Shown here: in pieces, positions 1 to 6,921 of the stretch
Layout: the number at the start of each line of letters is the position of its first letter
Position numbering within the stretch: position 1 is the stretch's first letter
Source: Flavobacterium gillisiae
Lineage (GTDB): Bacteria; Bacteroidota; Bacteroidia; Flavobacteriales; Flavobacteriaceae
Direction of reading: 5' to 3'
Assembly: GCF_900107635.1 (NCBI RefSeq)
Contig: NZ_FNRD01000015.1
Span: 62,001 to 126,000 of the forward strand
Length of the DNA stretch: 64,000 nt
The notes under the pieces: generated by a model
What the model was told of the DNA's origin: nothing
Databases searched by the model: none
Seen by the model: the letters and a program-made list of their open reading frames with translations, nothing else
Made by a program: the position numbers and the translations under genes

Positions 1-2
1 TA

Positions 3-935
3 GATAATATCTATAATGAATATAGAGGACTACCAATCAAAAAGGAAGAGTACATAGCCTCTTATTACAGAAAATTTTTAGCTCGAATACAAAAGCTAGT
101 CGGTATCGAAATAAAACAAAATACCTATGAAAAATTCGTTTATGTTGGAAACCACTTGGAAGCTTTTATAAAATGGAATCATAATAAAAACGATTTCCCT
201 TTAAAAGAATTGAGCTTACAGTTCCTAAATGATTTTGATTACTATCTAAAGACAGAAAAAAAGATAAAGCAAATTACTATCAATAAAATCATTCAAAGGC
301 TTAGAACTCCCATAAAACAAGCTATTTCGGAGACATATTTAGATAGAGATCCATTTATATTATACAAATCAAAAAAAACACATAAAGAAGTTGTATTCCT
401 CACTACAGAAGAACTTAAATGCATCGAAGGAACCATATTCCAACTTAAGAGATTAAGCATCATTCAAGACTTATTCGTTTTCTGCTGTTATACCGGATTA
501 GCGTATAATGAAATGAGAAGCCTTTCCATAAACAATATTCAAATAGGTTTTGATAGTATGAATTGGATCAAGATGAAACGAGAAAAAACACAACGCCAAA
601 TATCGATTCCATTGCTACCAAAAGCACAGGAAATTATCAATAAATATTTAATCGAAAGTAATTCTGTTTTCCCTCCTTTAAGCAATCAAAAATTCAATGC
701 CTACCTCAAAGAAATAGCAATTATTACTAAAATCGAAAAAAGAATTACCCATCACACAGCCAGAAAAACATTTGCCTCTACTGTATTACTATACAACGAT
801 GTTCCAATGGAAATAGTTTCTGAATTATTAGGTCATTCCAACATGTCAATCACTCAAGAAAGTTATGGAAAAGTAGTCCAAAAGAAAGTAAGTGAAGAGA
901 TGCTGAAATTAAAATTAAAGATAAATAATAGCTGA
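3..935 (+). CDS. Tyrosine recombinase (integrase), 5' end outside window
   Basis: The frame is open from base 3 to the stop at 933-935, so the gene starts upstream of the window; an in-frame TTG at 156 is only an internal codon. The part upstream of 156 reads like the SAM-like core-binding domain of Bacteroidetes site-specific integrases. The catalytic domain follows, with CCYTGLAYNE, HHTARKTF (H-x-x-R) and LLGHSNMSITQESYG (His box and nucleophile Tyr). At the usual first catalytic Arg position after TG-L there is Ala, a substitution that recalls the IntDOT group, where this Arg is also missing. It is related to the integrase at 12100-13314 and probably serves the left element. Family call is firm; the target site is inferred. 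Confidence 0.9.
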   Translation, partial: DNIYNEYRGLPIKKEEYIASYYRKFLARIQKLVGIEIKQNTYEKFVYVGNHLEAFIKWNHNKNDFPLKELSLQFLNDFDYYLKTEKKIKQITINKIIQRLRTPIKQAISETYLDRDPFILYKSKKTHKEVVFLTTEELKCIEGTIFQLKRLSIIQDLFVFCCYTGLAYNEMRSLSINNIQIGFDSMNWIKMKREKTQRQISIPLLPKAQEIINKYLIESNSVFPPLSNQKFNAYLKEIAIITKIEKRITHHTARKTFASTVLLYNDVPMEIVSELLGHSNMSITQESYGKVVQKKVSEEMLKLKLKINNS

Positions 936-1501: not shown

Positions 1502-1876
1502 ATGAAAAATAATATCATCGATATAAAACACATCACCTGTATTATCAATTTACAGAATACTTCTGCATTTCATTATTTAAATCTGGTATTTGACATAGAA
1601 CATAAGTTACTAACTAGCAGCGGTCGGGCTTATGAAGACCGCCTCCTTGATCACAAATACCTGGTTATTTATATCTTACCTAGTCCTATAGACAAGAAAA
1701 TCACAACTAAGCTAATACAATTAATACAAGAAGAAAAGATAGATTATGTAATAATTGACGAACTATTTCCTGAGGATAATTCTCTTTTTTTAAATCAAAA
1801 AGAGATTCCTACAACAGCAGAATGGATTGCAAATAGTCATTTTTCTAAACACCAATCATTTATAGAAGTACTATAA
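1502..1876 (+). CDS. Unknown small protein upstream of the helicase operon
   Basis: 124 residues, not recognised. It has no signal peptide or membrane segment. The middle alternates hydrophobic strands and charged helices (LVIYILPSP near residue 53, then IDYVIIDELFPED near 80), suggesting a small alpha/beta fold. It ends 39 bp before the nuclease-helicase-methyltransferase gene on the same strand with no terminator between, so it may be part of that operon. Start taken at the first ATG. No function can be assigned. Confidence 0.6.
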   Translation: MKNNIIDIKHITCIINLQNTSAFHYLNLVFDIEHKLLTSSGRAYEDRLLDHKYLVIYILPSPIDKKITTKLIQLIQEEKIDYVIIDELFPEDNSLFLNQKEIPTTAEWIANSHFSKHQSFIEVL

Positions 1877-1915
1877 GTCGTATCGAAAATAAAGTGTCAA
1901 AATTAAAGATAAAGA

Positions 1916-4900
1916 ATGAACAATAAATCGTTAGCAATTATTTATATCGAGGAATTATCGGAAATTCATTTCGATAACATCTTGACAATTCCTGAAAAGT
2001 ATAAAAAACTAAGAGACCTATTAGAAAAAATAACCAAAGAGCTGACTAAAAACGAAGTAGTTAATTTTTCCAATTTATTTTCAAGGCTAACATTTATTGT
2101 AGACAAATACCAAACAAAAAGGAATATCCACAGATTCAGAGGTACCGCAAACGAAGTAGTCTATAAACAGAAAATGGTGAGTTATGAAGAGTACAATACC
2201 CACTTCAAGTATATTGCAGAATTCATTGCTAAAGTTTTTAATTATAGTATTCCACAATTAATTCAAAACGAATTCCCAATTGAAGAGTTTAAACCGGTAT
2301 ACGACAAAAAATCAGGGAAGATTGTATCTGAATTACGAGCTGAAATTATCGAAATTCAAGATCGCTTCCTCATTTGTGATTTTGAAAACAATCAAGACGA
2401 TAATTTCATTAAAGTAAGTATTAATGATGTAACCCATAATTCTCTATTCACTTCAGTCAATGACTTTTGGAAGCATGCTCAAGTAAATTTAGTAAATGTT
2501 ATTATTGATGAAAATGGAATATATTTTCCAAAAATAATTATCCTTGAACCAGACTATCTTGTAGATGTTTCAGCAATTGCTGAGTGCTTTCAAGATTATG
2601 GGACATCAGCATTAAATTATATAAAATCAAAATTTGAGGAAACTCCAAACAATAAACATATTAGGTTAGGGAATTTTGCCAACTTAGTAATGGATAAGAT
2701 GTTCGCCAAGCAAGACGATGAAATTCTAGAATTTAAAGATGTTATAAAGGAAGATTTCAGGCAGTATCCCATCGAGTATGCTACTTGTAATGATATTGAA
2801 GCAACTGCAGACATGCAAGAATATGTTAGGAACTGCCAAACCCAATTCAGCAATATCAATAAAGTTGTAGTAAATGATTTCAGTCGTGAACCAGTAAGTA
2901 TTGACATAAAAAAAGCTACGTTAGAACCAACATTTCTTAATAAACGATATGGTATCCAAGGTCGATTAGATGTACTACAGAATATCGAGAAACAAAAGGG
3001 GAAATCCAAAATTATTGAACTAAAATCAGGAAGTCCACCTTTTCCGGATGATGGAGTGAGTATGAAACCAAACCATGCTACGCAACTATATTTATATTAT
3101 CAATTGATTGGTTATATAAATCAGTTAGATTTTAATGAAATAAACGGGAAAATTGAAGGACATATTTTATATTCAAAACTTCCAAATAATAATATTCGAT
3201 CTGATAAACCCTACTTAAAAAGAATACAAGAAATTTTTAATTTAAGAAATGAAATAGTATTAAATGAATTTCTATTATCGAAAGATGACATGAGTATTAC
3301 GAGCGAAATTATTGAAAATATCACTCCTGAAAACATTATAAAATACAAAATATATCCAGCTTTTAAAGCTTTATTAGAACCTCAAATTCTCAAATTAAAT
3401 TTTGTTCTACAAAACTGTTCTAAATTAGAAAAAGCCTATTTTTTTTCCTTCTTTAGTTTTGTAGCAAAAGAGCAATATTTAGCAAAACTGGGCAATGGCC
3501 AATCTGATAACAGTAATGGTTTAGCAAACTTATGGCTAAACCAATTTACTGAAAAGGCAGAAAGATTTGAAATACTTTACGATTTAAAAATTATAGAAAA
3601 TTTAGCGAATCAAAAGGCTGTAGAAATTACATTTACTCGTACAAATGAAGCAAATAAATTCGTGAATTTTAGAAAAGGAGATATTTGTGTTTTATATCCT
3701 AGAGTAGTAGAAGAAGATATTGCTACAGACAATCAAATTTTTAAATGTACCATCAAGAATATTACAACGACAGAAGTAACTGTCGGTTTCAGAAACAAGC
3801 AAAATAATACTATTTTTTTTAAAAAATACAGTACATGGGCTATTGAACGTGATTTTATGGATAGTTCTTTCACAGCTATGTATCGAAATTTATTTAGTTT
3901 TATTGACGCCAATACAATTAAAAAAAACATCATTTTGGGGATTGAGCAACCCAAAATTGTTCAGGATTATAGCTTCAATAAAAAGCACTTATCAGATGAG
4001 CAAAACCGTATTATTTCAAAAGCATTATCTGCTGACGATTATTTTTTACTTAATGGACCACCAGGTACTGGTAAAACATCAATAATAATAAAAGAATTAG
4101 TAAAAGAAATAATCACAAATTCAGAAAGTACAACACTACTTTTGGCTTATACAAATAGAGCCGTAGATGAAATATGTGAAGCTGTTTCAGAAGCAACAGC
4201 AGAAATAGCACATGACGTTTTAATAGATAATATAAATACTAGTTTTATAAGAATCGGAAGTGAATTGTCTTGTAATGAAAAGTTTAAACGAAATTTAATT
4301 AATAACGTCTGTAGCAATGCACAAAATAGAAATGAAGTCCGACAAATTTTAACTTCAAAACGGATATATATTGCTACAGTTGCATCAATGTCAAGTAAAT
4401 CAGAGCTATTTAAATTAATAAACTTTGATAGAGTAATAATTGACGAAGCTTCGCAAATACTAGAGCCACAAATCATAGGAATACTTACCAAAGTCAAAAG
4501 ATTTATTATGATTGGTGACCATAAACAATTACCTGCAATTGTCTTACAGGATCCTTTATCTTCTTCAACAAAAAATGAAAGTTTAGAAAAAATAGGCTTA
4601 GCAAATCGCAAAAATTCTTTGTTTGAAAGATTATACAAATATTGCGAACAAAATAAAATTGAGTGTGCATATGATATTTTAACTTACCAAGGAAGAATGC
4701 ATAAAGAAATTGCTTTATTTCCCAATCATATTTTCTACAATTCACTATTGAATCAGGCTTTTGACATTCCAAATTTAAAAGACTCAAGCAAAGTGAACTT
4801 AATGAGACAAGTTCTTGACTTAGACCTTAATTCAAAAACAAAAAACACCTTAGAAGATCTACTTACTAAAAAAAGAATGATATTTTTTCCTAGTAAAGTT

Positions 4901-6301
4901 GATGACAAAAATCATTTTAGTAAGTCCAACGAATATGAGGCTAGATTAGTTGTCAAAATAGTAAAGCAAATAATTGAAATATACAATAATAACCAATTAG
5001 AATTTTACCATTCGAAAACAATAGGAATCATAGCGACCTATCGCAATCAAATTGCAATTATAAAACAACAATTAGAAGAAGCGAAAATTCCAAATTTTGA
5101 AGATATTACGGTAGACACGGTAGAGCGGTTTCAGGGTAGTCAAAGAGATATTATTATAGTTTCATTTGCAGTTAACAATCATTATCAATTAAATGGTATT
5201 GTTAATTTAAATGATGAAGGAGATGTAGACAGAAAATTAAATGTTGCTTTAACTAGAGCCAAAGAACAATTAATTGTAATTGGTAATGATGATATTCTTT
5301 CAACAAACTTAATTTATTACAAATTAATTGAGTTTATCAAATCCAAAGGTGGATATGTTTGGGATAATATAGAAGATGTGCTTGCAGATAGCCTGAAATT
5401 CGATTATTTTGAGAGTGACATTATAATAGCTGGAAAAATTTTTATACTGGATAATGACTTTAAGACCATGTTTGATGATATAATTATTAATCCTTTGAAA
5501 TTTGATAAAAGAACTATTAAATATCCTGAATTAATTTTAGGTAAAAGCAACGATTTTATTCGTAGTAATATAATTGAATACGGTAGAGCTAATTTTGATA
5601 CCTCTTATACTTATCAAACTAATCTATTTACGCAAGAATTTAGTATAAAGGACAAAGTAATGTTATATTGTTTTTACAATATGAGAAAGCATTATTTTTC
5701 TAATATTTCAGTATTTGATTCCTATTTCGATCTATTCAAATTAGAATTAAAACAAAATTCAAATAGGATAACTTTTATTGATTTTGGTTGTGGTCCTTTA
5801 ACTGCTGGGATAGCTTTTAATCAATTTGGAAAAAAAATAGTTGAAAATTTTAATATGAACTATTTTGGTATTGACATATCAAGTGGAATGGTAGAAATGG
5901 CTAAAGAATTTAGTAAAGAAAACATCTTTCACAATAACTCAACTTTTCATTTTAATAAAAGTTATACTGAAATTAACGAAGAATTATTAGAAGAATTATT
6001 TACTTTGCCAAATCTTGTAATTTTAAATTTTTCATATTTATTTGCAAACTTAGATTTAGAGCAAACAATTGAATTGGCTCAGCAAATAAATAATACGGTT
6101 GACAAATTTCCTTTAAACAAATACATTGTCATTTACCAAAACCCTGTACAAAGACATCATAATTTTACACGATTTAAAAAAGAATTGAAAGAAATAAATA
6201 AAAATAATATTCGTAAAACAGAAACTGTATCTTATAGAAACAAAGAAAACAGTAGTTATGATAATTCAGAAACATTTACTTACGAAATAATAACTAATTG
6301 A
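1916..6301 (+). CDS. RecB/Cas4-like nuclease + SF1 (Dna2-type) helicase + SAM methyltransferase fusion
   Basis: 1461 residues in three parts. Residues about 340-400 carry a PD-(D/E)xK-type signature: GRLDV with D352, then IELKSG with E368 and K370, then a HATQLYLYYQL helix as in RecB/Cas4 nucleases. Residues about 690-1125 form an SF1 helicase of the Dna2/Upf1 type: Walker A GPPGTGKT at 714-721, Walker B IIDEAS at 841-846, GDHKQLP at 867-873, VDTVERFQGSQRD from 1066 and LNVALTRAKEQL from 1108. The C-terminus from about 1285 has a class I methyltransferase motif I (FIDFGCGP, 1287-1294) and a GIDISSGM acidic loop. Its motif IV region (LNFSYLF) lacks the N/D-PP-Y of DNA amino-methyltransferases, so the substrate may be RNA, a base modification or a small molecule. 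The stop overlaps the AlkB gene. Domains are clear; the biological role is unknown. Confidence 0.9.
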   Translation: MNNKSLAIIYIEELSEIHFDNILTIPEKYKKLRDLLEKITKELTKNEVVNFSNLFSRLTFIVDKYQTKRNIHRFRGTANEVVYKQKMVSYEEYNTHFKYIAEFIAKVFNYSIPQLIQNEFPIEEFKPVYDKKSGKIVSELRAEIIEIQDRFLICDFENNQDDNFIKVSINDVTHNSLFTSVNDFWKHAQVNLVNVIIDENGIYFPKIIILEPDYLVDVSAIAECFQDYGTSALNYIKSKFEETPNNKHIRLGNFANLVMDKMFAKQDDEILEFKDVIKEDFRQYPIEYATCNDIEATADMQEYVRNCQTQFSNINKVVVNDFSREPVSIDIKKATLEPTFLNKRYGIQGRLDVLQNIEKQKGKSKIIELKSGSPPFPDDGVSMKPNHATQLYLYYQLIGYINQLDFNEINGKIEGHILYSKLPNNNIRSDKPYLKRIQEIFNLRNEIVLNEFLLSKDDMSITSEIIENITPENIIKYKIYPAFKALLEPQILKLNFVLQNCSKLEKAYFFSFFSFVAKEQYLAKLGNGQSDNSNGLANLWLNQFTEKAERFEILYDLKIIENLANQKAVEITFTRTNEANKFVNFRKGDICVLYPRVVEEDIATDNQIFKCTIKNITTTEVTVGFRNKQNNTIFFKKYSTWAIERDFMDSSFTAMYRNLFSFIDANTIKKNIILGIEQPKIVQDYSFNKKHLSDEQNRIISKALSADDYFLLNGPPGTGKTSIIIKELVKEIITNSESTTLLLAYTNRAVDEICEAVSEATAEIAHDVLIDNINTSFIRIGSELSCNEKFKRNLINNVCSNAQNRNEVRQILTSKRIYIATVASMSSKSELFKLINFDRVIIDEASQILEPQIIGILTKVKRFIMIGDHKQLPAIVLQDPLSSSTKNESLEKIGLANRKNSLFERLYKYCEQNKIECAYDILTYQGRMHKEIALFPNHIFYNSLLNQAFDIPNLKDSSKVNLMRQVLDLDLNSKTKNTLEDLLTKKRMIFFPSKVDDKNHFSKSNEYEARLVVKIVKQIIEIYNNNQLEFYHSKTIGIIATYRNQIAIIKQQLEEAKIPNFEDITVDTVERFQGSQRDIIIVSFAVNNHYQLNGIVNLNDEGDVDRKLNVALTRAKEQLIVIGNDDILSTNLIYYKLIEFIKSKGGYVWDNIEDVLADSLKFDYFESDIIIAGKIFILDNDFKTMFDDIIINPLKFDKRTIKYPELILGKSNDFIRSNIIEYGRANFDTSYTYQTNLFTQEFSIKDKVMLYCFYNMRKHYFSNISVFDSYFDLFKLELKQNSNRITFIDFGCGPLTAGIAFNQFGKKIVENFNMNYFGIDISSGMVEMAKEFSKENIFHNNSTFHFNKSYTEINEELLEELFTLPNLVILNFSYLFANLDLEQTIELAQQINNTVDKFPLNKYIVIYQNPVQRHHNFTRFKKELKEINKNNIRKTETVSYRNKENSSYDNSETFTYEIITN

Positions 6302-6921
6302 TGCAAATAGATTTATTTAATACTGATAAAAAATCGAATCGGGAACTAACGATTGAAACCGCTAAATTAATAGAAGGTTTAAGGCTGCACTTTGACTTTA
6401 TTAATGCAACTGAAGAAAAAGAACTATTGAAAATAATTGATGAGAATAGTTGGTTAAATGATTTAACAAGAAGGGTGCAACATTATGGATATAAATACGA
6501 TTATCGAGCAAGGAAAATTGACAAATCATCTTATTTAGGTGATATGCCAAAATGGTTAAATGGCTTAAGTCAGAAATTAGTAAATGAAAAAATTATAGAT
6601 TTCATACCAGATCAAGCTATTATCAACGAGTACGAACCTAGTCAAGGTATTGCCTCTCATATTGACTGCGAACCATGTTTTGGAGACACGATTATTTCAA
6701 TATCATTAGGTTCTCATTGTGTAATGAATTATTCGAAAGAAGTCAACAGTAAAGAAAAAGAAGAACTGTTAATCGAACCTAGATCTTTAATTGTTATGAC
6801 AAACGAAAGCAGATACAAATGGTACCATGGCATACCGCCTAGAAAAACTGATAAGTTCAACGATGAAATACTGAAACGACAAAGAAGAGTTTCTATCACT
6901 TTTAGAAAAATAATTATATAA
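6301..6921 (+). CDS. AlkB-type 2-oxoglutarate/Fe(II) dioxygenase
   Basis: 206 residues from the ATG at 6301; a TTG at 6298 is the other possible start. AlkB enzymes oxidatively remove alkyl groups from DNA or RNA bases. The iron ligands are visible as HID within GIASHIDCEP and a distal His in KWYHGIPP, and the 2-oxoglutarate-binding arginines as RRVSITFR. NEYEPSQGIASHID matches the family's central strand. The ATG overlaps the stop codon of the nuclease-helicase-methyltransferase gene by one base (TGATG), so the two are almost certainly translationally coupled. Coupling a methyltransferase to a demethylase makes a modification-based role plausible; alkylation repair is the alternative. Confidence 0.92.
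   Translation: MQIDLFNTDKKSNRELTIETAKLIEGLRLHFDFINATEEKELLKIIDENSWLNDLTRRVQHYGYKYDYRARKIDKSSYLGDMPKWLNGLSQKLVNEKIIDFIPDQAIINEYEPSQGIASHIDCEPCFGDTIISISLGSHCVMNYSKEVNSKEKEELLIEPRSLIVMTNESRYKWYHGIPPRKTDKFNDEILKRQRRVSITFRKIII

What the first reader, a model, noticed from the sequence alone, without database searches (positions are those of the whole stretch)
1502..6921. Nuclease-helicase-methyltransferase fusion coupled to an AlkB dioxygenase
One 1461-residue chain combines a RecB/Cas4-like nuclease (D352, E368, K370), an SF1 helicase (GPPGTGKT at 714) and a class I methyltransferase (FIDFGCGP at 1287), and an AlkB dioxygenase gene starts on its stop codon. A methyltransferase and an oxidative demethylase in one operon with a nuclease-helicase hints at a system that writes, erases or senses a nucleic-acid modification. 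The methyltransferase lacks the NPPY-type motif of DNA amino-methylases. I do not know a named system with this layout; I could not search. An unknown 124-residue gene may be a third member.
Basis: partly seen in the sequence, partly recalled or inferred. Interest (0 to 1): 0.85.

Follow-up and report, generated by a model that had tools for sequence, protein, structure and literature searches.

The report
Methylase-AlkB pair on nuclease-helicase
A bacterial island carries a Dna2-like cutting-and-unwinding protein fused to a methyl-adding enzyme and coupled to a methyl-oxidising AlkB enzyme; the methylase and AlkB turn up together beside several different, mostly defence-like, genes in distant bacteria, which suggests an undescribed writer-and-oxidiser module.

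Summary
In detail: one 1461-aa ORF (1916-6301) joins a Dna2-type nuclease-helicase to a class I methyltransferase (MTase), and AlkB (ATG 6301) overlaps its stop by one base. The interpretation needs recasting. The nuclease-helicase is common in Bacteroidota (49 of 395 genomes) and only 3 of the 49 carry the MTase fusion. What recurs is the MTase + AlkB pair: MTase of PADLOC family C3a159, AlkB ALKBH8-like. All 8 loci found with an intact MTase of this family have AlkB (next gene in 7, second gene in 1), in four architectures; only two of the eight (G012, G1024) were discovered from the MTase alone. One further, divergent MTase domain (G351) has lost its SAM motif and has no AlkB nearby. The converse fails: AlkB usually occurs without the MTase. 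Neighbours include type III CRISPR genes, a retron-like reverse transcriptase, Wadjet-like and ADP-ribosyltransferase/glycohydrolase genes; the window copy lies in a defence-like island. The 124-aa gene is not conserved. Best reading: a portable methylate/oxidise pair used in conflict systems, here attached to a Dna2-like enzyme. Substrate and direction are unknown; no activity is shown. I found no paper describing it in the listings searched.

The parts
1916..6301 (+). 1461-aa fusion: N-terminal region, Dna2/Cas4-like PD-(D/E)XK nuclease, SF1B (UPF1/DNA2-type) helicase, C-terminal class I methyltransferase
   Evidence: relative in G218 59-60% identical
2648..3355 (+). nuclease domain, about residues 245-480 (D260, E337, D352, E368, K370, Q390, Y394)
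   Evidence: these residues identical in 30 of 30 homologues; family profile colinear with DNA2 in PDB; Pfam Dna2 in 5 of 10 members scanned, not in the window protein itself
3983..5305 (+). SF1B helicase core, about residues 690-1130 (GPPGTGKT at 714, DEASQ at 843)
   Evidence: AAA_11 1e-31, AAA_12 2.6e-37; DNA2 best solved relative, 6.3e-30
5516..6298 (+). class I SAM methyltransferase domain, residues 1201-1461 (FIDFGCGP at 1287, FGIDIS at 1317, VILNFSYLFA at 1368), family C3a159
   Evidence: PADLOC PDLC01079 E 1.8e-19; alignment A5; motif positions
6301..6921 (+). AlkB dioxygenase, ALKBH8-like (H121/D123/H177 and R197-x5-R203, numbered from the TTG start at 6298), overlapping the fusion stop by 1 base
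   Evidence: best solved relative ALKBH8, 2.6e-28
1502..1876 (+). 124-aa ORF of unknown function; not conserved with the system
   Evidence: no match in G218
1..935 (+). tyrosine recombinase upstream of the system (403-aa ORF that begins 277 bases before the window)
   Evidence: Phage_integrase 4.9e-17 on the part inside the window; whole ORF L054 16724-17935

Best explanation
The functional unit is a portable pair: a class I MTase (C3a159 family) that methylates a nucleic acid and an ALKBH8-type dioxygenase that oxidises the product. The pair is attached to different nucleic-acid engines in different conflict systems. In the window the engine is a Dna2-type nuclease-helicase: it would load on flap or single-stranded nucleic acid of an invader, the attached MTase would modify it and the nuclease cut it, while the separately translated AlkB limits or reverses the modification on host nucleic acid. 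That is a modify-and-erase logic comparable to DarT/DarG (recalled); two relatives of the pair carry an ADP-ribosyltransferase/glycohydrolase gene in the same operon. Status: domains and motifs shown; MTase and AlkB together in 8 loci and four architectures shown; defence-type surroundings shown for several. That both enzymes act on the same base, that AlkB erases rather than further modifies, that the target is the invader, and DNA versus RNA, are all inferred.
For: Two pair loci were discovered from the MTase alone and both have AlkB as the next gene: G012 (then 47) and G1024 (then 68). The other six (window, G218, three Picosynechococcus plasmids, contig L047) came in through the window protein or the AlkB query, or were themselves in the MTase query; MTase searches of 395 phylum, 395 order and 349 family genomes, 72,556 plasmids and the viral contigs added no strong MTase locus without AlkB. 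MTase-AlkB spacing runs from 1 base of overlap to 31 bases in seven loci; in L047 a helicase gene lies between. G012 and G1024 share the order SF1 helicase - 2CompART/2CompARG - MTase - AlkB at 60/43/52/55% identity. The MTase-like domain of G351 lacks the SAM motif (CDFSFEAG for IDFGCGP) and has no AlkB in 19 kb. Surroundings: upstream 20 kb of the window has type II R-M-like genes, PDC-S06 (AAA_13) and a SLFN_AlbA_2 gene and an integrase; G012 is beside Wadjet-like genes (scores under curated cut-offs); pAQ6 and PCC 7003 carry a RAMP gene nearby, with CARF-HEPN identified on pAQ6, and pAQ5 a retron-like RT. SF1 helicases in three of four architectures. AlkB catalytic residues invariant in 11 of 11 rows.
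Against: AlkB is not tied to the MTase: 24 of 25 viral-contig loci lack it within the flanks held, as do 3 of 6 Bacteroidota places; of 168 plasmid records with an AlkB match (mostly distant ones) only 3 have the MTase. The window's genome and G218 have no 2CompART gene, so the ADP-ribose argument is an analogy from relatives. Direction (erase or hypermodify) is open. Nothing shows the window copy is expressed or protective. The parent nuclease-helicase sits among unrelated genes in the three loci opened widely (L053, L055, L056, identities by eye), so it may be a repair enzyme. The AlkB tree is poorly resolved, so congruent descent was not shown. Three of the eight loci are near-copies (MTase 89-96% identical). 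Defence enrichment was not tested statistically.
Confidence: 0.35

Rival explanations
1. ALKBH8-like series chemistry: the MTase makes a methylated (for example ester) wobble or other RNA base and AlkB hydroxylates it, giving a hypermodified RNA; the system protects or rewrites tRNA/RNA under attack rather than marking DNA.
For: AlkB is far closer to ALKBH8 (2.6e-28) than to E. coli AlkB (best 5.5e-10), and the ALKBH8 alignment includes the RRVQHYGYKYDY segment; eukaryotic ALKBH8 pairs AlkB and MTase activities, and the authors of PMC4051686 say bacterial ALKBH8s 'may still' be RNA modification enzymes; the Roseobacter and Rickettsia proteins had negligible or low repair activity in their comparison with R. 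etli (passages); two of three plasmid loci sit by type III CRISPR genes.
Against: [quoted passage not shown] tumefaciens mutant (passages). The MTase profile found no TRM9/ALKBH8-type MTase in PDB. A Dna2-type nuclease-helicase points to DNA.
Confidence: 0.27
2. DNA repair or mobile-element maintenance: a Dna2-type end-processing enzyme that picked up an MTase and an AlkB to handle alkylated DNA; no immune role.
For: Homologues of the nuclease-helicase are widespread and sit among unrelated genes where opened; PMC4051686 reports DNA repair activity in vitro for all ALKBH8 proteins tested, and repair of etheno adducts by the R. etli protein (passages).
Against: Does not explain an MTase that adds groups, the same pair near CRISPR, RT and ART/ARG genes, or the defence-like island.
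Confidence: 0.2
3. Restriction-modification-like system: the MTase marks self, the nuclease-helicase cuts unmarked DNA, AlkB resets the mark.
For: Nuclease, helicase and MTase in one chain resemble type IIG/type I logic (recalled); R-M genes lie upstream.
Against: No NPPY-type or C5 motif; no target-recognition domain reported by Pfam; an eraser would undo self-protection; 46 of 49 genomes with the nuclease-helicase lack the fusion (27 by fetched loci, 19 by open-frame length).
Confidence: 0.1

Closest known systems
DNA2 / bacterial Dna2-like nuclease-helicases
   Same: Colinear RecB-like nuclease and SF1B helicase, family profile E 7.6e-71 over both parts; catalytic residues kept
   Different: Extra C-terminal MTase; no conserved four-cysteine set seen (only C224 and C754 nearly invariant)
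ALKBH8 (AlkB + MTase, tRNA wobble uridine) and the bacterial ALKBH8-like AlkB group
   Same: AlkB best matches ALKBH8; an MTase is paired with it
   Different: No RRM; MTase in another chain and with no detected relation to the ALKBH8 MTase; combined with a nuclease-helicase; the bacterial group as described in PMC4051686 lacks RRM, ZnF and MTase domains (passages)
PADLOC C3a159 'methyl transferase' (PDLC01079; reading C3a as type III CRISPR accessory is my recall)
   Same: Window MTase E 1.8e-19; Picosynechococcus members match nearly the whole profile
   Different: In the window it is fused to a Dna2-like protein; the Csm1 model finds nothing in the window's genome
DarTG-type modify/erase systems (recalled)
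   Same: Proposed logic of a writer and an eraser encoded together; relatives G012/G1024 also carry an ART/ARG gene
   Different: Methylation/oxidation instead of ADP-ribose in the window, whose genome has no 2CompART; activity untested
Mokosh MkoA and 'PLuB system helicase-like protein' (NF040671)
   Same: Helicase segment matches MkoA (1.5e-68, residues 597-1130) and PLuB_AAA (7.7e-70, residues 690-1140)
   Different: Match limited to the helicase; PLuB score 235.6 bits against a cut-off of 999; no other Mokosh part among the 5 window proteins scanned

Membership tests
Dna2-like nuclease-helicase | PD-(D/E)XK/RecB motifs D, ExK, QxxxY | tested here: met
   identical in 30 of 30 rows
Dna2-like nuclease-helicase | SF1B helicase C-terminal to the nuclease, colinear with DNA2 | tested here: met
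   profile 334-1096 to chain 258-1026
Dna2-like nuclease-helicase | Four-cysteine Fe-S cluster around the nuclease (recalled feature) | tested here: not met
   by alignment only: C224 and C754 nearly invariant, no set of four; structure model unusable
ALKBH8 | AlkB core with HxD...H and RxxxxxR, closest to ALKBH8 | tested here: met
ALKBH8 | N-terminal RRM | tested here: not met
   207-aa protein, only 2OG-FeII oxygenase families found
ALKBH8 | Partner TRM9-type MTase | tested here: inconclusive
   MTase present but of family C3a159; PDB profile search gave only trans-aconitate 3-MTase at 8.4e-4 and an antibody at 0.83; model mean pLDDT 49.7
ALKBH8 | tRNA wobble uridine substrate | not testable with these tools
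   needs biochemistry
C3a159 MTase (PADLOC) | Profile match | tested here: met
   E 1.8e-19, profile 48-210 of 265
C3a159 MTase (PADLOC) | Association with type III CRISPR | tested here: not met
   no TIGR02578 (Csm1) match in G000, G218, G012, G1024; other Cas10 models and CRISPR arrays were not searched
Restriction-modification | DNA MTase motif (D/N/S)PP(Y/F/W) or the C5 PC motif | tested here: not met
   motif IV region reads NFSYLFA / IASYLLA / NTCYLFA
Mokosh | Full-length MkoA/MkoC match | tested here: not met
   helicase segment only
Anti-phage defence system | Protection against phage | not testable with these tools
   only genomic surroundings available

The most novel reading that the evidence does not exclude
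The MTase + ALKBH8-type AlkB pair is the core of an undescribed class of prokaryotic conflict systems that act by enzymatic methylation followed by oxidation of a nucleic acid, with interchangeable engines (Dna2 fusion, UvrD-like helicase plus ART/ARG, kinase-WYL near CRISPR III or a reverse transcriptase). As the pairing of an ALKBH8-type AlkB with an MTase is otherwise known from eukaryotic ALKBH8, these systems may be its bacterial counterpart or source.
Probability: 0.22. Interest if true: 0.87.

Novelty: new variant of a known kind. Interest (0 to 1): 0.62.

Why it matters
Modification-based defence is known through restriction enzymes, phosphorothioates and ADP-ribosylation (recalled). 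A recurring module that pairs a methylating enzyme with an AlkB-type oxidase would add an erase-or-oxidise step to that list, would give a context to bacterial ALKBH8-like AlkB proteins, whose role was left open in PMC4051686 (passages), and could bear on where eukaryotic ALKBH8 got its two activities. It is directly testable with two genes.

Tried and rejected
Structure of residues 1-690 from a single sequence: mean pLDDT 32.5, discarded. MTase model: mean pLDDT 49.7, with a Rossmann-like strand/helix order; its Foldseek list (TYW4, DOT1L, MnmM, CmoA and others, best E 3.6e-4, low TM-scores) is not used as evidence. The 124-aa gene as a third member: rejected. MTase in phage records: none; in viral contigs with the first alignment: none. 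The ART/ARG protein of G012 in plasmids and viral contigs: none. The genome-contig scan returned only a weak MTase relative, L033, with no AlkB among its ORFs; viral locus L063 (9e-6) is likewise a distant MTase without AlkB. Both were dropped from the pair counts as generic MTases, as were four hits at E 3.5e-5 to 4.9e-4 (L035-L038), whose neighbours I did not examine. Rfam on L054: nothing. Repeats near the integrase: only a 19-base AT-rich pair, not convincing as att sites. AlkB tree: too poorly resolved to show congruence. Papers: the listings of searches (10-20 rows each at most, of up to 316 papers) showed no description of an MTase-AlkB-helicase or nuclease system; the library lacks most subscription papers, and two papers tried by DOI were not held.
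Full report
What is there. The 5.4-kb stretch encodes, on the + strand, a 124-aa ORF (1502-1876), a 1461-aa ORF (1916-6301) and a 206/207-aa AlkB (ATG 6301 or TTG 6298, end 6921). The 1461-aa chain has helicase domains AAA_11/AAA_12. D352, E368, K370, Q390 and Y394, with D260 and E337, are identical in 30 of 30 homologues, and GPPGTGKT at 7 of 8 positions (T718 in 29 of 30). A profile of ten members aligns colinearly with DNA2 over nuclease and helicase, E 7.6e-71; the Pfam Dna2 model is found in 5 of the 10 members but not in the window protein. The C-terminal part matches PADLOC C3a159 'methyl transferase', E 1.8e-19. AlkB is closest in PDB to ALKBH8, E 2.6e-28 against 5.5e-10 for the best E. 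coli AlkB entry. The AlkB ATG overlaps the fusion's stop by one base, as in the closest relative, G218.

The nuclease-helicase is not the conserved core. A whole-protein search found homologues in 49 of 395 Bacteroidota genomes at E <= 1e-30. Loci of 30 of these genomes were fetched, and only the window, G218 and G351 have a C-terminal MTase there; L030 also has an over-long open frame, without MTase similarity. In the 19 genomes not fetched the open frames are at most 1152 aa, too short for the fusion; their flanks were not examined. None of the 28 other homologue loci (L005-L032) has AlkB within flanks of up to 1.5 kb. Three Bacteroidota records in the plasmid collection match residues 3-1148 or less, also without the MTase. 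On a tree of the shared part the window and G218 are sisters (100/100), while G351 nests with an unfused protein (100/100), so the fusion label needs at least two changes. In G351 the MTase-like domain reads CDFSFEAG where others read IDFGCGP and no AlkB lies in 19 kb. The three loci opened widely (L053 = G351, L055, L056) sit among unrelated genes (identities by eye).

The MTase-AlkB pair is what recurs. The C3a159 profile gave 3 of 395 phylum genomes (G000, G218, G012). An alignment of six members, among them the window, G218 and G012 sequences, gave 4 of 395 order genomes, adding G1024. All four have AlkB as the next gene. Against 72,556 plasmids the Picosynechococcus MTase hit three records, all with AlkB next; these are the three records first reached through the AlkB query. 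In viral contigs the one strong locus (L047/L062, contig IMGVR_UViG_3300036781_000821), also first reached through AlkB, has MTase, an SF1 helicase, then a 935-aa protein whose residues 541-727 are AlkB. So 8 of 8 strong loci carry both, 7 as neighbours, but only G012 and G1024 are discoveries made from the MTase alone; three loci are near-copies, which leaves four architectures. Weak, generic MTase hits (L033, L063 and four) were left out; L033 and L063 have no AlkB, the other four were not examined. A family sample of 349 genomes found only the window strongly. G351 is a ninth, divergent case, without SAM motif and without AlkB nearby.

AlkB-first gives the other side: 6 places in 5 of 390 genomes, 3 with the MTase; 25 viral-contig loci, 1 with the MTase within the flanks held, many of the rest cargo genes in what look by eye like alphaproteobacterial prophages or GTA-like elements; 168 plasmid records, mostly with distant AlkB relatives, 3 with the MTase. 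AlkB therefore has a life without the MTase; the dependence runs from MTase to AlkB.

Architectures. (1) Dna2-like fusion + AlkB: window and G218 (about 60% and 65% identical). (2) SF1 helicase (403 aa) - 2CompART/2CompARG (709 or 613 aa; PF22546/PF22545) - MTase (486) - AlkB (208): G012 and G1024, 60/43/52/55% identical in order; G1024 is of the window's own genus. In G012 an HD-CE/HATPase gene lies upstream and Wadjet-like genes downstream (MukB-like 2.8e-4, JetD_C 0.003, both under curated cut-offs, no PADLOC match). The window's genome and G218 have no 2CompART gene. (3) AAA_33 kinase-WYL - MTase - AlkB on Picosynechococcus plasmids, near a RAMP CRISPR gene on pAQ6 and PCC 7003 (CARF-HEPN shown for pAQ6) and near a retron-like RT on pAQ5. 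(4) MTase - SF1 helicase - AlkB fusion, near a mad8/TrwB-like gene, in a metagenomic contig. Outside the pair, an AlkB in G132 sits with PLD, SNF2-helicase, PD-(D/E)XK and ADP-ribosylglycohydrolase genes.

Surroundings in the window's genome. The 17 kb upstream of the window (in L054) hold a C5 DNA methylase, a REase_II-like AAA_5 gene, PDC-S06 (AAA_13), a SLFN_AlbA_2 gene and a 403-aa tyrosine recombinase that ends 567 bases before the 124-aa ORF. GC is 0.279 for the fusion and 0.237 for its MTase part against 0.335 for the window. This is a defence-like, mobile-looking island; no enrichment test was made. No Csm1-type cas10 was found in this genome.

Mechanism. Kept active-site residues and tight coupling make a working pair likely. 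The two chemistries can act in opposition (methylate, then demethylate) or in series (methylate, then hydroxylate, as in ALKBH8). I favour opposition, with AlkB as self-protection, because the partner here is a nuclease-helicase and because in two relatives a second writer/eraser-like gene is in the operon; odds 0.35. The series reading keeps 0.27: AlkB is ALKBH8-type, and PMC4051686 (passages) leaves RNA modification open for bacterial ALKBH8s; the same paper, however, reports DNA repair activity in vitro for all proteins it tested and no tRNA-Gly(UCC) change in an A. tumefaciens mutant. DNA or RNA is open.

Novelty. Each part belongs to a known family; the combination did not appear in the listings of my paper searches, and term searches inside the phosphorothioate, BREX, jumbo-phage, NAD-ADPr, CoCoNuT and DefensePredictor papers gave nothing on it. 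I rate it a new variant of modification-based conflict systems, with a bolder reading kept open.

Noticed in passing
L039 2882-6549, L040 2875-6549, L041 2882-6549: In Picosynechococcus the same kinase-WYL/MTase/AlkB block sits near type III CRISPR genes on pAQ6 (and in PCC 7003) but near a retron-like reverse transcriptase on pAQ5 of the same strain (PCC 7002), as if swapped between systems.
   Followed up: partly
L071 3416-10139: ALKBH8-like AlkB (G132) next to an ADP-ribosylglycohydrolase, a PD-(D/E)XK protein, an SNF2-type helicase and a PLD protein, with an integrase-like gene (by eye) on the other side; a second link between this AlkB and ADP-ribose enzymes.
   Followed up: partly
L052 116-16623: G012 region with HD-CE/HATPase gene, SF1 helicase, 2CompART-ARG, MTase, AlkB, then Wadjet-like genes.
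   Followed up: partly
L070 5116-10662: Another AlkB copy in G012 lies among small genes that include three tandem similar ~300-aa genes.
   Followed up: no
L078-L099: ALKBH8-like AlkB as a cargo gene in many alphaproteobacterial prophage or GTA-like contigs, near portal-like and capsid-like genes (labels by eye).
   Followed up: no
L009 1381-5649: G351 homologue with a C-terminal MTase-like domain whose SAM motif is lost and no AlkB in 19 kb: a possible natural co-loss.
   Followed up: partly
L054 6632-15701 (upstream of the window): Defence-like island: C5 methylase with a REase_II-like AAA_5 gene, PDC-S06 (AAA_13), SLFN_AlbA_2 gene.
   Followed up: partly
Bacteroidota homologues: A Dna2-like nuclease-helicase of mostly about 1100-1150 aa occurs in 49 of 395 genomes sampled, among unrelated genes in the three loci opened; I met no study of it in the paper listings.
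   Followed up: partly
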